A stretch of 64,000 bases of DNA from Mycteria americana (taxonomy: Eukaryota > Chordata > Aves > Ciconiiformes > Ciconiidae). Position numbers and translations under genes: made by a program. Positions 3,392 through 25,725 of the stretch are shown piece after piece. The notes under the pieces were generated by a model that did no database searches, was not told the origin of the DNA, and saw nothing but the letters and a program-made list of their open reading frames with translations. The stretch's first letter is position 1. Every line of letters starts with the position of its first letter. Location of the stretch: the NCBI RefSeq assembly GCF_035582795.1, contig NC_134368.1, positions 8,223,501 through 8,287,500 of the forward strand, read 5' to 3'.

Positions 3392-3649
3392 GGTTTTTAT
3401 GTATCCCAGTTGTACTGCTTTTGAATATAACTATTTACAAATGTGTGTAGTCCTGTGGTTGTTCCTTGTTTGCTGCTTATCAGTGTATTTTTGAGGGAGA
3501 AAAAAAACTGTGAGAAAAGGCAGCTGGTGGTTACACATTTATAAATAACTACAGTATGTTCTGCAGAATGAGATAACATGAAAAAGACAACTTGTAAAAT
3601 CTTTCTTCTTTCCCAGCATCTAGATTAAAATTTTATTCTATATACATAG

Positions 3650-3870
3650 AAGAACATGAAAGTGGAAAGGACCTCTCAGGTACTTGAGATCAGTTCCCTA
3701 GATTACTGTAAGCAACCACATTGGCTATCTTTTTCCATAAACTGCTCAATTTTCAACTTAAATAAACTTGTTAATTTATATTTCACATTTATTCTGGGTG
3801 ATTATTCCAGTGCTTCACTCCTGTTTTATTAAGAAATCTGTAATTTCCAACCTAAATCATTGGACATATG
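3650..3870 (-). repeat. Old CR1 LINE 3' fragment
   Basis: Read on the plus strand, 'ggaaaggacctctcaggt' and later 'ttattccagtgcttc' and 'tttccaacctaaatc' follow the order of the antisense CR1 3' region. Many substitutions and gaps separate it from young copies. It lies upstream of TMED11 exon 1. Confidence 0.6.
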
Positions 3871-4970
3871 TATACACCTGTACAAAACCCATAAGGACTA
3901 CATAAAAGGGCTGAAAGAAATATGAAGAAGAAAGTCAAAAGAATTTGAAAAATAAAAGACTCTGAAACACTAATGAATATGATACAGCAGCAAAAAAATA
4001 ATAAAATTAACACTTTCTGAATAAGATTTTTTTACATAAGAATGTCTTTCTTTTAGATACTGCCTAATAAATTCTCTAAAGAAAGTTATAGTGTAAATTA
4101 AATAATGATAGAGGTTTTTATTATTACCCTTTGTACTAATATAGACCAAACAATCTATATGCCTGATGATGAACTCAGTTACCACTCAAGTGTTCCTTGT
4201 CCTATGAACTATCACTGCTCTGAAAGGCTGGCCCCAATGTGAGAGGATACATGGTCATTTTCCAGCCAGGAGGACCCACCTATGGGATCATTTCCAGTAG
4301 GGAGGTGCCACCTTTGAGCTCATTTTCCCCTTCAGAAGCTCCCTACACTCCTGTTGATTCTAGTTTGATCACTGACTCTTTCCAACCCTGCCATGTTCCT
4401 CAGCAGCACCTGGCATTTGCAGATGAAATTGTTCAGTCATGTCCTTGAACGTGTCTTTGATGAACCTCTTAGTTCACTTCAGAATTCTGTCATCTTGACT
4501 GCAGGGTATGGGATATAAACTACCTCTACTGCACACACACATGCCATATAGGTGGGACACAGTGCCATAGACAGGGAAACCACCATCTCCTTGCTGGAAT
4601 TTTACCAGCATTTATTTTGCTTAAAAAGGTGGTAGTTGGATTTTATTTTATGTTTTGTTTTTATATATCTGTCAAATGCTCAGCTGCATAAGTTGTATCC
4701 TCAACACTATGCACACACCGAAGGATCATGACTAGCCCTTTTCCCTTATTGTTTAACACCTCCTCTGAATTCTTCTTTCCATTTCCTCATACAATGTCCC
4801 ATTTGCACTTACTGTTATTTGGTGACACCTATTTATTAGCAAATAAGACTATGTTGGTCTTCCTATCCATTTCTGAGCAGCCCTTCTGAGAATCTGCTTT
4901 AGCAGGAGATGCATTCTGCTAGTGCCGGTAGCCGTAGAATTGGCTCTATCATAACACAAGAACATGTATT

Positions 4971-5241
4971 TTCCTAGTACCAAGGAAGAAGGATGGACAG
5001 CAACTTATCCTCAATATCTGTAATCTAAATTCCTAAAATTTCAGGATGGTAACTCTTACTGGATTATTTCACGTCTGGTGGTTTATTGCCTTTCACTGCA
5101 CCTGTTATCTATAAAGTCGTCTCACTAAAAAATGTCTTTGCCTAACACTGACACAGGCTCACAACCATCATAAGTTCACTCCATTCCACAGCATTAATTA
5201 TCTTCACAGAAGTTCTAGCACAAGTATTAGTTCACCTCCAG
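4971..5241 (+). pseudogene. DIRS-like reverse transcriptase fragment, broken
   Basis: 4971-5057 is in one frame with a single stop: FLVPRKKDG, LILNICNLN, then FRMVTLTGLF and WFIAF. The next recognisable block (5185-5241) is in another frame, so at least one indel separates them. The following VYPYLDDW active-site region is decayed: the two aspartate positions near 5260 fall on stop codons. The enzyme cannot be functional. Confidence 0.6.
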
Positions 5242-6542
5242 CAAAATACAACATCCCTATACTGATAAAAGAGATTGTCAAAGATGAGGAGCATTGATTC
5301 CTTAAACATTGCTTCTTTTTCTTTGACTCTATATGGTTAAGGATAGAGGGATACAAATTACATCTCATGGCCATTGAATCCTTAGGAGTCTCAAGGGTGA
5401 TATTAGGACTCCGTTACTGCTTTAACATTTACCCATCAGAAATAATTTTAGCTTGTACAGAATCTCATCATATAATTGGACTCTTACCCCTCCAGCACAG
5501 GGAGATCTTGACTGACATGCACCTGCATAAGTTCTCATGCCATACTATACCTGTAAGAAGTATAGGTTTGTCTGCAGATTGTGAGCTGCTTAAGCAATCA
5601 TCCTTTTAGCTTTTCATTGACTACTTGAGGTGTCCAAATTTCTATGTTCCAATGGTAGAACACAAGATGTACAAGGGGATGCCACTTTATCCTTCACTCT
5701 GCCCAGACCAGTTGGGACAGACATGTTACTTCTGTACTTTTGGCTAGCAGATGCTAACATAGTAGGGCTGCTGGAGTTCAAACAAACAAAAATAAGTCAG
5801 CCTCCAGGTGATCAGGTTGTCATGCAGCATATTGAGAGCTTTTTTGTCTCAGGCATTCGCAGTACCTGTAAATTACTATGGATGCAACTTCTGCATACTA
5901 CATCCCATTAAACAGGATTTGGCTGACTTCAGAATTGCTGTATCAAGTGTTAGATTTATTTTCTGAGCACATTAAATATTGTCATGGAATAGTCTGAGTT
6001 ACTTTATTATGTTGCATCATTCATAACAGATCAGATATTCCCAACGTATTTCAATCACCTGGGACTAGGAATATCATGGAATGGACTTTTTTGCCTTCAA
6101 TACCATCAAGTACTCTCAGACCTTTTGCTCACACTCTAGTTATGTCTTGATGGGGACAGTGCTCATTCAGTGATCAGAAAGGCTGGCAAATGCTTTCCTT
6201 CCCATTCTAGAAGTTAGGCACACGTTAGTTTCTGTGACCATGCTTAACTTAGGCAGTGTGGCTAGGATATTAGAGCTATTTTTCAATGAATCCAAGACTG
6301 TCCCTCCCCAAAATGATCTTTAACAGCAGACCCTGTGCCATTTTGACAATTGCCTGCAACATTTCATAGCAGGCTCAGTGGACAAAATTTGGTCAGTTAG
6401 AGTTGGCCTATTTATACAGTACACGTATATAGTATAGAGTTGGCCCTCTGATACAGCTTCTCCTCAGTTGTGGGAAGACATATTTACTTAGCAAAATGGA
6501 ACAGGGCCTCAAACTCCAGTTAGTGAGTTTGTTTCACACACA

Positions 6543-7640
6543 CCCTGGGCATTCATCCCAGTCATTTTGGAGTGTTTGATAGAATGAAATATCTGTCCTC
6601 TCCTTTAGTCCACCTAAGGCTCACACAACCAACATGTATGCTATGGTACCAGGGAGAGCTTTTCAGTTCAGTTCAGTTCATAGATCACATCAGTCCTCCC
6701 TGTATCCTGCCTTACCTACAAAAGTACCCTGTTTTTTTCCTAGTCATTAACAACCAAGGTGCTGTATTGGGTGTCTGCAGAGAAACCACGGCCCATAGAA
6801 AAGCATAAATGCACACACAGCTTCAGCTGGCGTTCCTACCTACTAGGAGATAATAGGAAGAGCTTTCATGTGTTCACAGATAACTGTTCTTAAATTCCTT
6901 AAGGTATTGGACAAGTTGTTCTCAGTAATAAGGTACCCTGTTCCACTATAGGAAATGAATTTGGTGTTTGTGGTTTTTGTAGGACCACAGTTCACGTCTA
7001 TGGTGACTTTTTTTGCTGCTACACTTACCTTTAACCATGTCTTCCATTCTGCAAGAATATCTGCCAAGGCATCAAAGCTGATTCTTCCTACAAAACATTC
7101 TTGCTAAAAAATTTTCTTTACAAATCCATTTCCAGTTTCCTCCCAAAGTGTTTTCTGAGATTAGTTTAACCCAGAAATTAATTTACCTATTTCCTTCCCT
7201 AAATCTCATATATTTAGGACCACAGCATCTTGGCTGCCAGCCATCTGTAACACTGTATGTAGGGAAAAAGGAAGGAAGAGCTTTTCTGTGTTTCTTCACC
7301 CCAACGGGACGCAGGGGGCCCCTCCCCTACCCCTTTTATATTTTTCTTCCTTCTGTCCTAAAATTTTTAAGACAAATCCAAGACTGTGTTGAAAGTAAAA
7401 GCTACAAAGACCTAGCCATATATGCACACAGGGATCATGTACCTCACTAATCAGTTTAATAAAGATATGTTGCGAGAAATGTGCTCCATCATTAGAATGT
7501 GCTTCACTAGAACTCACTGTATCCACAGTCTTGCCAAGAAATGTCTCCATCCCTGGTGTTTGCAAAGTGAATACCTGGAACTATATGGCCAAACATTATA
7601 CTGCCACAAGGGCATCCTTAAAGAATGCCATATTTACCAA
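6543..7640 (+). pseudogene. DIRS-like tyrosine recombinase fragment, broken
   Basis: Recombinase-like pieces appear in frames that shift at least twice: ILE at 6562 and SSPLVHLRL near 6600, PPKVFSEISLTQKL from 7139, then GRAFLCF from 7279. The last is VCKVNTWNYMAKHY at 7558-7599, ending in the HY that would hold the nucleophilic tyrosine. The arginine-histidine-x-x-arginine part is not clearly preserved. Confidence 0.5.
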
Positions 7641-7699
7641 GGTCTCCTGAAATCACTGCTTACAAAAAAACCCATATCCAGATAATGGACTGGATAGGA

Positions 7700-9930
7700 A
7701 TCTTCTGCTTGAAGGAACCTGCAGTGAGTATTCACGTATGTAAACACTCTAAAATAGAAAAATTATTTATCAATAACTGGAGTTTCCTGAAATGTGTTGG
7801 CCTTTTACATATTCACTTCCCTTTCTACTCCACCTCCTCCTCTCATCCCTTCTCCTTCAGTGTCCTTTGGGAAACTTTTGGCTTCAGGAGTTTGAGTAAA
7901 CACTGGGACTGCTCTGCTATCAAATCACATATTGTAGGACTGAAATCCTAGATTCGAGTCATGTATACAATTACAGATGCAGATATTCTTCTACTGGACC
8001 TAGCCCTTTAGTTGTTCTGGACACATGAAGAAGCAAAACTCTAGTGTTTAGAGAACTTCCAGGAAGCTTCCTCCAAGAATACCTTGTGGTTTGTGGGTTT
8101 GTTTTCCCTAAGTCATAATTTTGACTTGCATCTGATTTCTGCCCAAGACCTTTATTGAGTTTAGTCTATCACCAGTTGATCAATCAATTTGAAATTAGTT
8201 CCTGTCCTCAAAGAATATTTAAATATATACTTCCATATACTTCAGTTTTCTAAGATGGTGATAACTGTGTAATTATATAGTAAATAAGTTTAACAGAAAA
8301 CAAAACATAGAATGAGTAAAAATTAATATAAAAAGAAGAAAGAAAAAAATTGAAAAGGTGGAGAAATTAACTAAACACAAAATATGAAAATGATAGTCTA
8401 ATAAGACTATTTCCATTACAGAATGGAAACAGTGGAACCTGAGAAAAAATAGGTATAATAGAAAGAGTAAGTGAAACAATTTTGAAAATGAGGCAACAGT
8501 GGGAATCTAAACAATGCAAGATGTAGAAATTCCTATACTTAGCTCTAACAACTGTGCATTTATCAGCATTTGCAGGACCAACTTAGTCTAGCCTGATAAA
8601 GTTTCAAATTTCTTTGGGTCTTTGCAGGATTTGTCTCCTGGAAAAAAAATATAGAGAACATTTTAAGTGTTTCAACCCTACAGAGAATACAGTGTGCTCC
8701 TTTAAGTACATAATATATTTTCTGGTATTTGGCATATTCCAAGAAGAACCTACTCAAATCAGCATCTCCTTTTTAATATCTGTGCTGTATATTTGTAAAA
8801 TTGCAGTGCGCTGTAAAAGTTTTGTGGGCTGACTGTAAACATATTCTATTGAACAGTGTTATTCCAAAATCCTTTTCCTAGCTGGTAGCCACAAGCCTTT
8901 ATAAACCGTATGTTACACTCATTTTATCAGTTATTTGAGCATTAAAACTTGCATTCAGGAACAGTTTCTGACATATTGTGTTTTGTTATATCCTGTGTAT
9001 ACCTCAGTTTTAGATAATATTAAAACATTGCTAAGTTTTCTCTGTAAAAAGATTACAATGACACAAACAGCAGCAAACACATTTAAAGAAACAGGGACAC
9101 ATTTACTGCATATATAAAGACAAAGATATAATTTATGTTATGGTCAGCAGTGTTAACTTTGAGATAGTTGTCTCATGAGGGACACACACCAACAATCAGT
9201 CAGTTTTTAAATGTCAGCTAACACTTTTAATTAAGTTCAGAGGTTTTCTACTAGTATTCACACTTCTGATTTTTTTTCTAGTAATTTTGTTGGCCGAGTG
9301 TGCTCATGACAGATATTCTTCTCACTTTTGAGAAAAAAAGAAAAATAAAGGAATTTTCATGTATTCATAAGTCTCAAGACAAGTTCACTTAGTTATATTA
9401 TTGCCTTAACCACACTGCAAACATCTGGTCACTCTGATTTATATAAGTAGTTTCTGAAGAAATGCATGTTAAACATGTTTAGAAAGACGACAAAAATGCC
9501 AATAAATTATAATAATATAATTTAGAGAAAAAATTAATTTCTAGGTATAAATAGCTGTAGATCAACAAATTACAGTATTTAAGTACGTCATTAGTTTAGA
9601 TTTTGTGATTGAAAGATTTTTACATGTGTGAAGTATAACGCTTCCAAATGTCTTCTTTTCTGCCACTAGAGGGTACTCCAAGAACTTACAGTATATTTAT
9701 AGCAGGGATTTATTTGGGGGGTTTTGGTCTGTGAATGACCACGTACTGTTGCCATACTAAACTTTAGGAATTTAACCCCCCAAAATCTTGATATTAAACA
9801 ACAACTTTCAAAACCAATCTAATACACCTTTTCAGCAAAATAGTGCAGCATACCTGAATTACAAGGAACATTGACTGACATGTAGTTTAGATTTAGTTAA
9901 ACTTATCCTACTTTTAAATTATCTAAATTA
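7700..9930. other. Non-coding region between the DIRS-like relic and SPON2
   Basis: AT-rich, without recognisable coding exons or a repeat I can name. It is 3' of SPON2 and will include its 3' UTR, whose extent cannot be set. A further AATAAA on the minus strand lies near 9710. Confidence 0.5.
9660..9675 (+). promoter_or_regulatory. CTCF-like motif downstream of SPON2
   Basis: CTGCCACTAGAGGGTA fits the central GCCAC(T/C)AG(A/G)GGG core of the CTCF site. A single motif match in 64 kb is weak evidence. Its place between TMED11 and SPON2 would suit an insulator or loop anchor. Confidence 0.3.
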
Positions 9931-21800: not shown

Positions 21801-23410
21801 TTTTATTTCCAAAAGGTCTTGCGATAGGATGTTGGAACAGGCATTCATGCTATCTTTCTATGCACCAAAACCCCACAGAGCTGAGGAAAAAACCTAGCTT
21901 CTTTGACCTGTTCATCAGTCTTATGTTCTGAGCTGTGGGTTGAGGGTCAGCTTTCAGAGCACTGTGCTTATCTGTGGAGTGCCTGCACCAGCAGTATTAG
22001 CTCACTGGACTGTATAGCATGCAGGACTTAGCAGAACTCTGAAACAAGCTGAGTATTTAGAAGATGCTGAAGGCAAATCTTGCAGACCCAAGTTGGTCAC
22101 TTGCAGGAATCCCTGCTTTTAAATTCACTTTGGATATTTGCAGGAAAACCTCTAACTGAAACAAAAATTGCTCTGAAGAGAATCTAACGTGTATTGTACT
22201 ACAGCTTCATTACAGTACAAGACAGGATATTTTTGTGGTATTGTGCACACACACAATGTAAGAAAAAAGTGTTTTAATTACCATATTACTTCATTCTGTC
22301 ATTCTTTAGTAGGATTGAGTATACAGCCTGTGTAGAAATTCCTATGGTCATTCCAATATGGTAGTTTTCAAGTTTACTGTACTTGTTTAACATATCAGTT
22401 TTAGGGTTTTTTTCCACTGTTTCCAATGTGAAGAGATTTGGGGGTTTTTTTGTTGGACTTTATCCTTCTCACATCCTTTTGTTTCTAATGGAATTGTCTT
22501 TATTTCTAACCCTCACTTGTTAATAAATTCAATAGTTTTCTATTACATCATAGGGAATATTTAAGATAGCTGTCTATACAAAAGTTGAGGAAGAAGAGAA
22601 CTGAAAACTGCCTAAGGAAAGTGCCTTTGTCCCCTAAGGGGACAAAACTACAGCAGGATAATTAAAAGAAAAAAAATTAGTTCTCATTTTGTGGAAAATA
22701 TGGATTGCGTCTTCCAACAAATCCAATCTTCCTGTTATATCTTTCACTTCTTTTGTACAGTGGAATGAACCTGTACCATTAACATTTGTACTTCTTGTTT
22801 GCCATTGAATTTCCACTGGAGAAAGATTTAAACACTAAATAATTCTACTCATACCACTACAAAGGCTACTTTTCAAAGTGTTGACTTTTTGAGACCAATT
22901 TGATGCTTTCTTTTCCCTGGAGAAAAGTCAGCCCTTTATCTCTCTGGCAACACTGTAGAAGACCACCAAATTATATTTCTAAAGTAGTCACTATCAAGGC
23001 CACTCTTTGCTTATATTATTTCCTGCTTCACAGTCATTTTTGTTGATTTCTCTTGTATTTTTTTCAAAGGTTTTAAATATATTACATGATAGCTGTGGAG
23101 TTACATCTTTAATTCATGTGAATAATGAGCTACTGTAAAAAATGGATTGATCTTTTCTGGGAAGTTCATCCATATATCACAGTCTGCACATAGCTCTAAT
23201 TCAGTAAAAGATCCATTATTTGCCACCATAGCACAGTATCTTCTTCCCACCCCAGTATGGGCGAGGAGCCAATGCAGACTTAAGGGTAGCATTGGAATGA
23301 GGAGTTGTGGTCCGCTGTCAGAGTGGAACCACGTTTTTGGGACCAGGATGTATTTTTTACCTTCCCCCATGGAAATTATATAGGAAAATCAGTACAACTT
23401 TCCTCTTTAC
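15850..23410. other. Intergenic or upstream SPON2 region without recognisable genes
   Basis: Both strands give only short open frames with no family resemblance that I recognise. It contains a G-rich run near 20499-20517 (GGGGGGGGAGGGGGG) followed by a T-run. More untranslated SPON2 exons could be hidden here. The 20.7-22.1 kb part is slightly richer in GC and may be an old, unrecognised repeat. Confidence 0.4.
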
Positions 23411-23414
23411 ATAT

Positions 23415-25035
23415 GTATGACCTAGTATCAACAGACGAGGAGAAGGCTGAGGTACTCAACAACTTTTTTGCTTCAGTCTTCTCTGGCAACTGCTCTCCTC
23501 ACCCCTCCCGAGTCAATGGACGACATGTTGGGGACCAGAGGGGTAAAGCCCCTCCCAATGTAAGGGAAGATCAGGTTTGTGACCACCTGTGGAACCTGAA
23601 CATATATAAGTCTATGGGACCTGATGAGATGCATCCCAGAGTCCTGAGGGAATTGGCTGATGTAGCTGCCAAGCCACTCTCCATGATATATGAAAAGTCA
23701 TGGCAGTCAGATGAGGTCCCTGGTGACTGGAAGAAGGGAAACATTGTGCCCATCTTTAAAAAGGGTAGAAAGGATGACCCTGGGAACTACTGACCTGTCA
23801 GCCTCACCTCTGTGCCTGGGAAGATCATGGAACAGATCCTCCTAGAAGCTATGCTAGAGCACATGGAGGACAGGGAGGTGATTCGGGACAGCCAACATGG
23901 CTTCACCAAGGGCAAGTCCTGCCTGACCAACCTAGTGGCTTTCTACGAGGGAGTTACCACATCAGTGGACAAGAGAAAAGCAATGGATGTCATCTATCTG
24001 GACTTCTGTAAAGCCTTTGACGTGGTCCCCCACAACATCCTCCTCTCTAAATTGGTGAGATACGGATTTGATGGGTGGATTGTTCAGTGGATAAGGAATT
24101 GGTTGGATGGTCACATCCAGAGAGTGGGAGTCAATGGCTCAATATCCAGATGGAGATCAGTGACAAGTGGTGTCCCTCAGGGGTCTGTACTGGGACCAGT
24201 GCTGTTCAATGTTTTCATCAATGACATTGACAGCAAGATCGAGTGCACCCTCACCAAGTTTGCAGATGACACCAAGCTGAGTGGTGCAGTTGACACACCA
24301 GAAGGACAGGATGTCATCCAGAGGGACCTGGACAAGCTGGAGAAGTGGGCCTGTGAGAACCTTATGAGGTTCAACAAGGCCAAGTGCAGGGTGCTACACC
24401 TGGGTGGAGGCAATCCTCAGTTTCAATACAGGCTGGGGGATGATGTGATTGAGAGCAGCCCTGCGGAAAAGGACTTGGGGGTACTGATGGACGAAAAGCT
24501 GGACATGAGCCAGCAATGTGCACTCGCAGGCCAGAAGACCAACCGTATCCTGGGCTGCATCAAAAGCAGCGTGGCCAGCAGGTCGAGGGAGGTGATTCTG
24601 CCCCTCTACTCTGCCCTGGTGAGACCTCACCTGGAGTACTGCGTCCAGCTCTGGAGCCCTCAGCACAAGAAGGACATGGAGCTGTTGGAGCGAGTCCAGA
24701 GGAGGGCCATGAAAATGATCTGAGGGCTGGAGCACTTCTCCTATGAGGACAGGCTGAGAGAGAGAGTTGGGGTTGTTCAGCCTGGAGAAGAGAAGGCTCT
24801 GGGGAGATCTTATAGCAGCCTTCCTGTACTTAAAGGGGGCCTATAGGAAAGATGGGGACAGACATTTTAGCAAGGCCTTTTGTGACAGGACAAGGAGTAA
24901 TGGTTTTAAACTAAGGGAGGGCAGATTTAGACTGGATTTAAGACAGAAATGTTTTACAATAAGGGTGGTGAGCCACTGGCACAGGTTGCCCAGAGAGGTA
25001 GTGGAGGCCCCATCCTTGCAAACATTCAAGGTAAT
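23415..25035 (+). mobile_element. CR1 LINE, ORF2 reverse transcriptase region, truncated at both ends
   Basis: CR1 is the main non-LTR retrotransposon of birds. The copy starts inside ORF2 ([20 protein letters not shown]) and runs through the RT domain: [42 protein letters not shown] and the FADD active site at 24259-24270. It continues to [20 protein letters not shown]. Two in-frame TGA codons, at 23791 after GNY and at 24721 after KMI, replace arginine codons of the family, consistent with CGA to TGA decay. After 24760 frameshifts accumulate. The copy stops near 25035 at 'acattcaaggt', before the normal 3' UTR and octamer tail. It is relatively young but dead. Confidence 0.93.
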
Positions 25036-25135: not shown

Positions 25136-25725
25136 ATCATTCGAGAGCATAAGAAGACCTTCGATATAGTAAAGACCTCAGGCACTTGCAGTATTGCATT
25201 TCAGCGTTCATTAGACCTCATCTAGAATTTTGTATCCAGTATTGTGCCCCCCCTTAACCTCCATACAGGAAAGACATTGATAAGCTCGAGTTAGTTCAGC
25301 GGATAACCACCAAGTTTTGTTCAGCCTGGAGAAGGGAAGGCTTTCAAGGGAACCCAATAGCAGCCTTCCAGTGCCTATAAGGAGGTCATCAAGAAGATGG
25401 AGCTAGACTCTTCACTGCGCTGAATGTTGGGAGGATGAGTGACAATGGGCATAAATTGAAGCAAAAGACGTTCAAATGGAAATAAGGATATAAGGAAAAA
25501 CATTTTCACTATCGTAAGAGTCAAGTGGTGGAGCAGTTGGCCCAAAGATGCAGTGCAGTCTCCTTCCTTGGAGGCTTTAAGATGAGACTACATAAAGCCC
25601 GGAGCAACCTGATCTGATCTCAAAGCTGACCCTGCTTTGAGTAGGAGATTGGACTAGAGACATCCTGAGGTCCCTTATAACTGGAACTATCCTATGATCT
25701 TATGATCTTATGATTTTATGAAGAA
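25136..25725 (+). mobile_element. Older CR1 3' fragment with octamer tail
   Basis: Starting near 'gagagcataagaagacc', the sequence follows the CR1 3' region: 'cattagacctcatctagaa', 'caggaaagacattgataag', 'ttcagcctggagaaggga'. It ends in 'gatcttatgatcttatgat', a decayed CR1 terminal octamer repeat. It is much more diverged than the copy that ends 100 bases upstream in the same direction. Confidence 0.8.

What the first reader, a model, noticed from the sequence alone, without database searches (positions are those of the whole stretch)
4210..7690. Ancient DIRS-like tyrosine-recombinase retroelement in a bird genome
Several short translated blocks, in the right order and on one strand, match the DIRS layout from reverse transcriptase to recombinase. 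The STAP-RVFTK-like block and the KHY recombinase end are not expected of gypsy, ERV or LINE elements. DIRS elements are well known in turtles, amphibians and fish, but to my knowledge seldom reported in birds. The heavy decay suggests insertion long before modern birds split.
Basis: partly seen in the sequence, partly recalled or inferred. Interest (0 to 1): 0.75.

Follow-up and report, generated by a model that had tools for sequence, protein, structure and literature searches.

The report
Ancient DIRS retrotransposon fossil in bird
A badly decayed but recognisable copy of a DIRS retrotransposon, a jumping gene that inserts itself with a tyrosine recombinase, lies in what looks like a bird genome together with dozens of similar relics, although birds have been described in print as lacking this kind of element.

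Summary
On the + strand, window 4870-6482 aligns with the RT-RNase H frame of DIRS retrotransposons and 6802-7661 with their tyrosine recombinase (YR). Each scores 181 against a profile of DIRS proteins; the best of 400 shuffles scored 112 and 117, and the best of 160 overlapping 4-kb tiles of flanking genome 114 and 95. The YR carries the case: a six-frame search of the window's genome with a tortoise DIRS YR lists this copy at E 5.9e-5. Turtle DIRS fit best. At the RT, Ty3 and CR1 are not separable from shuffles. The frames are broken, so the copy is dead. MT, gag and terminal repeats could not be shown. It is one of many: the YR query gave 100 matches at E<=1, 52 rows below 1e-3; the reversed protein gave none. 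Genome size, chromosome ladder and CR1 tails indicate a bird. Papers whose passages I read call DIRS absent or undetected in birds; tetrapod-age DIRS fossils were already reported in human, most of those listed being found via alligator or turtle. So: a new member of a known kind, in a host group thought to lack it. Age was not dated.

The parts
4201..8200 (+). probable extent of the decayed insertion (200-base G+C values 0.35-0.50, flanks 0.23-0.35); ends approximate, inferred
   Evidence: G+C profile; no terminal repeats found
4870..5266 (+). reverse transcriptase, lead-in, fingers and palm (FLVPRKKDG, RMVTLTG, STALIIFTEVLAQVLVHLQ); frameshifted
   Evidence: profile alignment; RT palm block 0 of 300 shuffles; the lead-in before 4967 is in the joint alignment only
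5322..5655 (+). RT thumb/connection, weak
   Evidence: in the joint alignment; alone 71 of 300 shuffles as high
5673..5915 (+). RNase H-like segment
   Evidence: alone 7 of 300 shuffles as high
5946..6482 (+). stretch where the end of the RT ORF (methyltransferase-like part) would lie; not shown
   Evidence: covered by the joint alignment only; alone 146 of 300 shuffles as high, best hit elsewhere
6802..7209 (+). tyrosine recombinase, end of the core-binding part and start of the catalytic domain (best-preserved block 6901-7209)
   Evidence: block 6901-7209 0 of 300 shuffles; six-frame match 6829-7212, E 5.9e-5
7344..7661 (+). tyrosine recombinase, catalytic C-terminus, with NVSIPGVCKVNTWNYMAKHYT; KHY at 7591-7599
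   Evidence: 0 of 300 shuffles

Best explanation
A dead DIRS1-like retrotransposon, most like those now seen in turtles, inserted in an ancestor of this bird and since decayed by substitutions and indels. When alive (inferred from the family, not shown) it copied its RNA with its own RT/RNase H and integrated the DNA with a tyrosine recombinase instead of an integrase. No long reading frame survives. It is one of dozens of DIRS recombinase fossils in the same genome.
For: RT-RH and YR profiles each 181, collinear and on one strand, above all shuffles, permuted profiles and 160 flanking tiles. Best single match a tortoise YR, 156, 77 of 239 residues identical. Of 120 YR references 76 beat all 20 of their own shuffles on the + strand, 0 on the reverse; of 26 RT references 17 beat all 10 of theirs. 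Mean YR score by named group: turtle 113.5 (18), coelacanth 105.7 (3), amphibian 76.5 (15), squamate 75.7 (21), ray-finned fish 51.4 (8). Ty3 RT 204 of 300 and CR1 RT 42 of 300 shuffles as high, two turtle DIRS RTs 0 and 6 of 300. The reference YRs match Cre-type recombinases of known structure (best E 5.5e-6). Whole-genome search: this copy at E 5.9e-5, row 37 of 100; reversed query 0 matches. Breaks: 10 stops and 54 frameshifts in the RT alignment, 2 and 21 in the YR; longest stop-to-stop frame in 3600-8400 is 122 aa.
Against: Six-frame searches with the RT ORF or an RH-MT piece did not list the window copy. Pfam finds nothing in 10 single ORF pieces or in the two readings with X at breaks. 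No inverted terminal repeats. MT and N-terminal parts not independently supported. A fish DIRS RT does not beat shuffles here (95 of 300). High raw scores can arise on antisense CR1: RT profile 145 at 23618-24830 minus, and one of three YR references tried over the whole window (P0262) scored 104 there against 100 here. The window copy has no DNA match at E<=1e-3 among the 20 other YR loci fetched, and 4900-5700 matches only itself in the genome.
Confidence: 0.95

Rival explanations
1. A Ty3/gypsy or endogenous-retrovirus relic whose RT resembles DIRS by shared ancestry.
For: DIRS RT is related to Ty3 RT (4ol8, E 3.8e-14 with a turtle DIRS). Genome-wide, the DIRS RT query mostly lists RT frames with few or no stops that look like other retroelements.
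Against: Ty3 RT scores like shuffles at this site, 204 of 300 as high. The downstream match is a tyrosine recombinase, which these elements lack (family knowledge).
Confidence: 0.02
2. Another tyrosine-recombinase element (Ngaro, PAT, or a Crypton next to an unrelated RT).
For: All carry a YR; terminal repeats that would separate DIRS from Ngaro or PAT are not preserved.
Against: The fossil matches both the RT-RH and the YR reference sets in order. The reference P0122 carries RVT_1, with sub-cutoff RT_RNaseH and Dam matches as expected of DIRS1-like elements. No Ngaro, PAT or Crypton references were held, so no direct contest was run.
Confidence: 0.03
3. A chance run of similarity in G+C-richer DNA.
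For: Antisense CR1 reaches 145 with the RT profile; several sub-blocks alone are at chance level.
Against: 0 of 400 shuffles, 0 of 300 permuted profiles and 0 of 160 flanking tiles reach either score; separate six-frame match E 5.9e-5; the reversed query gives nothing in 1.35 Gb.
Confidence: 0.005

Closest known systems
DIRS1-like elements of turtles (proteins from Gopherus, Chelydra, Pelodiscus and others: P0122, P0123, P0231, P0233)
   Same: RT-RNase H and YR in this order and orientation; highest scores; weak grouping in the tree
   Different: the turtle proteins are long open frames; here about 32% identity, stops and many frameshifts; terminal repeats not found
DIRS protein fossils of tetrapod age in the human genome (Frith 2022, PMC9004415; passages read)
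   Same: ancient, frame-broken DIRS relics; four of the five listed were found via alligator or turtle; one aligned to a protein named DIRS-1a_Amnio_pol
   Different: those five are 144-235 bp pieces; this one spans 2.8 kb from RT to YR and lies in a bird
Xenopus DIRS-like families (PMC9210276; passages read)
   Same: gag, RT/RH/MT, YR plan
   Different: ITRs and ICR described there; none detected here
Ty3/gypsy elements and CR1 LINEs
   Same: encode an RT
   Different: one RT of each does not fit this site better than shuffles; no YR

Membership tests
DIRS1-like retrotransposon | RT and RNase H of DIRS type | tested here: met
   joint profile 181, 0 of 400; RT palm 0 of 300, RNase H 7 of 300; fits better than Ty3 and CR1
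DIRS1-like retrotransposon | tyrosine recombinase of DIRS type instead of an integrase | tested here: met
   YR profile 181, 0 of 400; E 5.9e-5 by six-frame search
DIRS1-like retrotransposon | order RT, RNase H, YR on one strand | tested here: met
   4870-6482 then 6802-7661, + strand; reverse-strand scores 61 and 59
DIRS1-like retrotransposon | methyltransferase-like domain after RNase H | tested here: inconclusive
   joint alignment runs through it but alone 146 of 300 shuffles as high, best hit elsewhere
DIRS1-like retrotransposon | inverted terminal repeats and internal complementary region | tested here: inconclusive
   no pair joining the two G+C steps was listed in 3400-9000; at this decay a repeat of about 120 bp could be lost
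DIRS1-like retrotransposon | gag-like ORF upstream | not tested
   no DIRS gag references held; 4224-4445 has no Pfam match
Ngaro / PAT | split direct repeats, own YR lineage | not tested
   no references held; the direct repeats listed are short
Ty3/gypsy | gypsy-type RT | tested here: not met
   one Ty3 RT stretch (4ol8): 204 of 300 shuffles score as high

The most novel reading that the evidence does not exclude
Birds are not free of DIRS: this genome keeps some fifty or more recombinase fossils of at least three DIRS lineages (two turtle-like, one frog-like), so a diverse DIRS fauna survived into the bird stem and then died out. The unevenly decayed copies, such as the one on C32 with a single stop in 166 aligned codons, mean either that lineages died at different times or that a few relics were kept for a function.
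Probability: 0.5. Interest if true: 0.62.

Novelty: new member of a known kind. Interest (0 to 1): 0.5.

Why it matters
[quoted passage not shown] A fossil spanning several domains and dozens of further recombinase fossils show that the gap is at least partly one of detection. They make the time of DIRS extinction on the bird line testable by orthology, and offer long relics in which to look for exapted sequence.

Tried and rejected
Fish DIRS proteins as single references (20 of 120 tried) gave weak hits, some collinear, with shuffles often as high. Pfam on 10 ORF pieces: nothing. Terminal repeats: none. Rfam at gathering threshold: 0 matches. Host clues from CR1 relatives: 4 distant loci in genome contigs, none in viral contigs, uninformative. 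Exact CR1 octamer-tail motifs: none in the window, six matches with one mismatch allowed in the flanking 200 kb. Placing the window copy by tree: branch too long to be trusted. Genome search with the RT ORF P0122: 58 matches at E<=0.01, mostly RT frames with few or no stops, many on C33, so RT alone was rejected as a marker. Clustering of the 51 YR loci along contigs: not convincing; gaps under 200 kb, 500 kb and 1 Mb numbered 2, 4 and 4 against 0.49, 1.13 and 2.19 expected, with 162, 53 and 341 of 2000 random placements as high (the sizes of C7 and C11 were my guesses). RT upstream of four other YR fossils: above the shuffle maximum in 1 of 4 (L048, 111 against 104 of 100 shuffles), below it in L049 (101 against 106, mean 71), nothing in L046 and L047. 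Flanking 200 kb: among the 25 longest open frames several were CR1, and I recognised no gene (by eye). A DNA-level paralogue search with 6800-7700 did not complete.

Full report
What is there. On the + strand a tattered protein-coding relic runs from about 4870 to 7661. I compared it, allowing frameshifts, with database proteins: one search returned fish-type DIRS RT proteins, RT-RNase H proteins including turtles and newts, YR proteins including turtles, lizards, amphibians and coelacanth (the best 120 listed each time, many without an organism name). Against the turtle Pelodiscus P0123 the RT region scores 95 (shuffles mean 53, max 64 of 10), aligned 4971-5916; 17 of the 26 RT references tried, of 227 proteins then held, beat all 10 of their shuffles. 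Against the tortoise P0233 the recombinase region scores 156 (shuffles mean 46, max 56 of 20), aligned 6802-7526, 77 of 239 residues identical, 1 stop and 11 frameshifts; 76 of 120 YR references beat all 20 of their shuffles, none on the reverse strand. Taking the best of the reference set in each shuffle, the YR exceeds all 120 shuffles (156 against max 102; 120 references) and the RT all 150 (95 against max 84; 20 references).

Profiles. A profile of 27 DIRS RT-RH proteins aligns columns 44-634 with 4870-6482 (10 stops, 54 frameshifts), and one of 43 YR proteins aligns columns 65-338 with 6802-7661 (2 stops, 21 frameshifts), each scoring 181. Shuffles reach 112 and 117 (400 each), permuted profiles 109 and 99 (300 each), and 160 overlapping 4-kb tiles from 100 kb on either side of the window 114 and 95. 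Results against: the RT profile scores 145 on the antisense of a CR1 at 23618-24830; one of three YR references tried over the whole window (P0262) scores 104 there and 100 here; and 4 of 8 sub-blocks taken alone do not stand up, three with best hits elsewhere. The case rests on the YR (6901-7209 and 7344-7661, 0 of 300 each) and the RT palm (4967-5266, 0 of 300), with RNase H in support (7 of 300).

Which family. At the RT, two turtle DIRS proteins beat shuffles (0 and 6 of 300 as high), whereas a fish DIRS (95 of 300), Ty3 (204 of 300) and the window's own CR1 (42 of 300) do not. By named group the mean YR scores rank turtle, coelacanth, amphibian, squamate, ray-finned fish (65 named of 120). 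The reference YRs match Cre-type recombinases of known structure (best E 5.5e-6). A tree with eight of 20 fossil readings puts the window copy, L028 and L041 beside one turtle clade (77/56, weak), L027 beside the other (94/84) and L026 beside frogs (95/92), but most fossil branches are very long. MT, gag and terminal repeats remain unshown.

The genome. The window is G000:C4:8223501-8287500 of a 1.348-Gb assembly in 279 contigs. Contig lengths seen include C1 223, C2 175, C3 133, C4 92.9, C5 75.2, C8 51.3, C13 19.2, C17 14.5 and C32 80.0 Mb. CR1 tails of the type I recall from birds occur (in the window three matches with 1, 2 and 3 mismatches; four with up to 2 mismatches plus six octamer-tail matches in the flanking 200 kb) and none of the turtle type I recall; exact octamer tails were not found in the window. 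Together this indicates a bird. Reading C32 and C33 as Z and W is my guess. No species name was available.

Not alone. The six-frame search with P0233 gave 100 matches at E<=1, 52 rows at E<1e-3 (51 loci, one listed in two frames), best 1.6e-29. The window copy is row 37, 6829-7212, E 5.9e-5. The reversed protein gave 0. The 19 distinct loci fetched from the top 20 rows all score 205-547 with the YR profile on the expected strand; the window copy at 181 is more decayed than these. An RH-MT query gave 12 matches at E<=1, the window not among them; one, C3:89029619-89029876 (E 0.018), lies 78 bases upstream of a weak YR match at 89029955 (E 0.11) on the same strand. An RT-RH signal immediately upstream was above the shuffle maximum in 1 of 4 other copies examined. 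DNA identity between copies, where alignable (4 pairs besides two overlapping cuts of one locus, 106-234 bases), is 62-69%; the window copy aligned with none of them at DNA level, and a DNA search with 4900-5700 found only itself in the genome.

Age. Simulated neutral decay of four turtle YR proteins, eight runs each, gives mean best scores of 139-160 at a nominal 0.5 substitutions per site and 201-311 at 0.4, against 156 observed. With avian neutral rates near 2e-9 per site per year (recalled) that is on the order of 200 My, but it depends on the assumed indel rate, the starting protein and the rate. It says 'old', not how old.

Mechanism. From the established biology of the family (recalled; domain plan in PMC9210276, passages), the live element made DNA with its RT/RNase H and inserted it by its tyrosine recombinase. 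That is inference. What is shown is a relic without a long reading frame (longest 122 aa in 3600-8400).

Literature. Passages of ten papers were read, none whole. PMC9210276: DIRS widely distributed except in birds and mammals. PMC5753468: DIRS found in anolis, not detected in bird genomes. PMC5006616: no DIRS elements identified in chicken. PMC3266345: DIRS1-like elements detected in Anolis, undetected in mammals; the terms 'birds', 'chicken', 'Gallus' and 'turtle' had no occurrence. PMC9004415: five DIRS fossils of tetrapod age in human listed (144-235 bp), four found via alligator or turtle, and 37 further pre-amniote DIRS fossils in human; 'chicken' 0 and 'bird' 2 occurrences. PMC5486457: its one DIRS passage names fish and reptile genomes. 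RepeatMasker tables of two birds pool Gypsy/DIRS1 (111 copies in an owl, PMC5629816; 137 in the sand martin, PMC13365828), so they do not settle it. PMC7211425 and PMC7561263 added nothing used here. In the search listings I saw no report of DIRS fossils in a bird; most subscription papers are not in that library.

Noticed in passing
L026 (G000:C32:78196086-78199550): Best six-frame YR match in the genome (E 1.6e-29): 84 of 166 residues identical to the profile consensus, 1 stop, 4 frameshifts; groups with frog DIRS (95/92). Much less decayed than the others; no RT detected upstream.
   Followed up: partly
L027 (G000:C1:48495484-48498756): Highest-scoring YR fossil with the profile (547, columns 3-339), with ...ICREATWSSVHTFTKHYAL...; groups with a second turtle DIRS clade (94/84); no RT detected upstream.
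   Followed up: partly
G000:C3:89029619-89030185: RH-MT match (E 0.018) followed 78 bases on, same strand, by a weak YR match (E 0.11): possible second collinear DIRS copy.
   Followed up: no
G000:C33: Contig with many long open RT frames of other retroelements matched by the DIRS RT query (15 rows of 941 aa on C33); by recall this would suit a W chromosome. Not examined further.
   Followed up: no
window 23290-24830: CR1 LINE with a 309-aa open RT frame (RVT_1 E 2.7e-29); its antisense strand gives misleadingly high scores with DIRS profiles and one YR reference (145 and 104).
   Followed up: yes
window 25640-25720: CR1-like 3' end with an ATCTTATG octamer tail; further CR1-like open frames by eye near 28.5, 35, 52.5 and 58.5 kb.
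   Followed up: partly
window 4259-4325: 32-bp imperfect tandem repeat (2.1 copies, 77% matches) just inside the G+C step at 4201; could belong to the element's 5' end or be unrelated.
   Followed up: no
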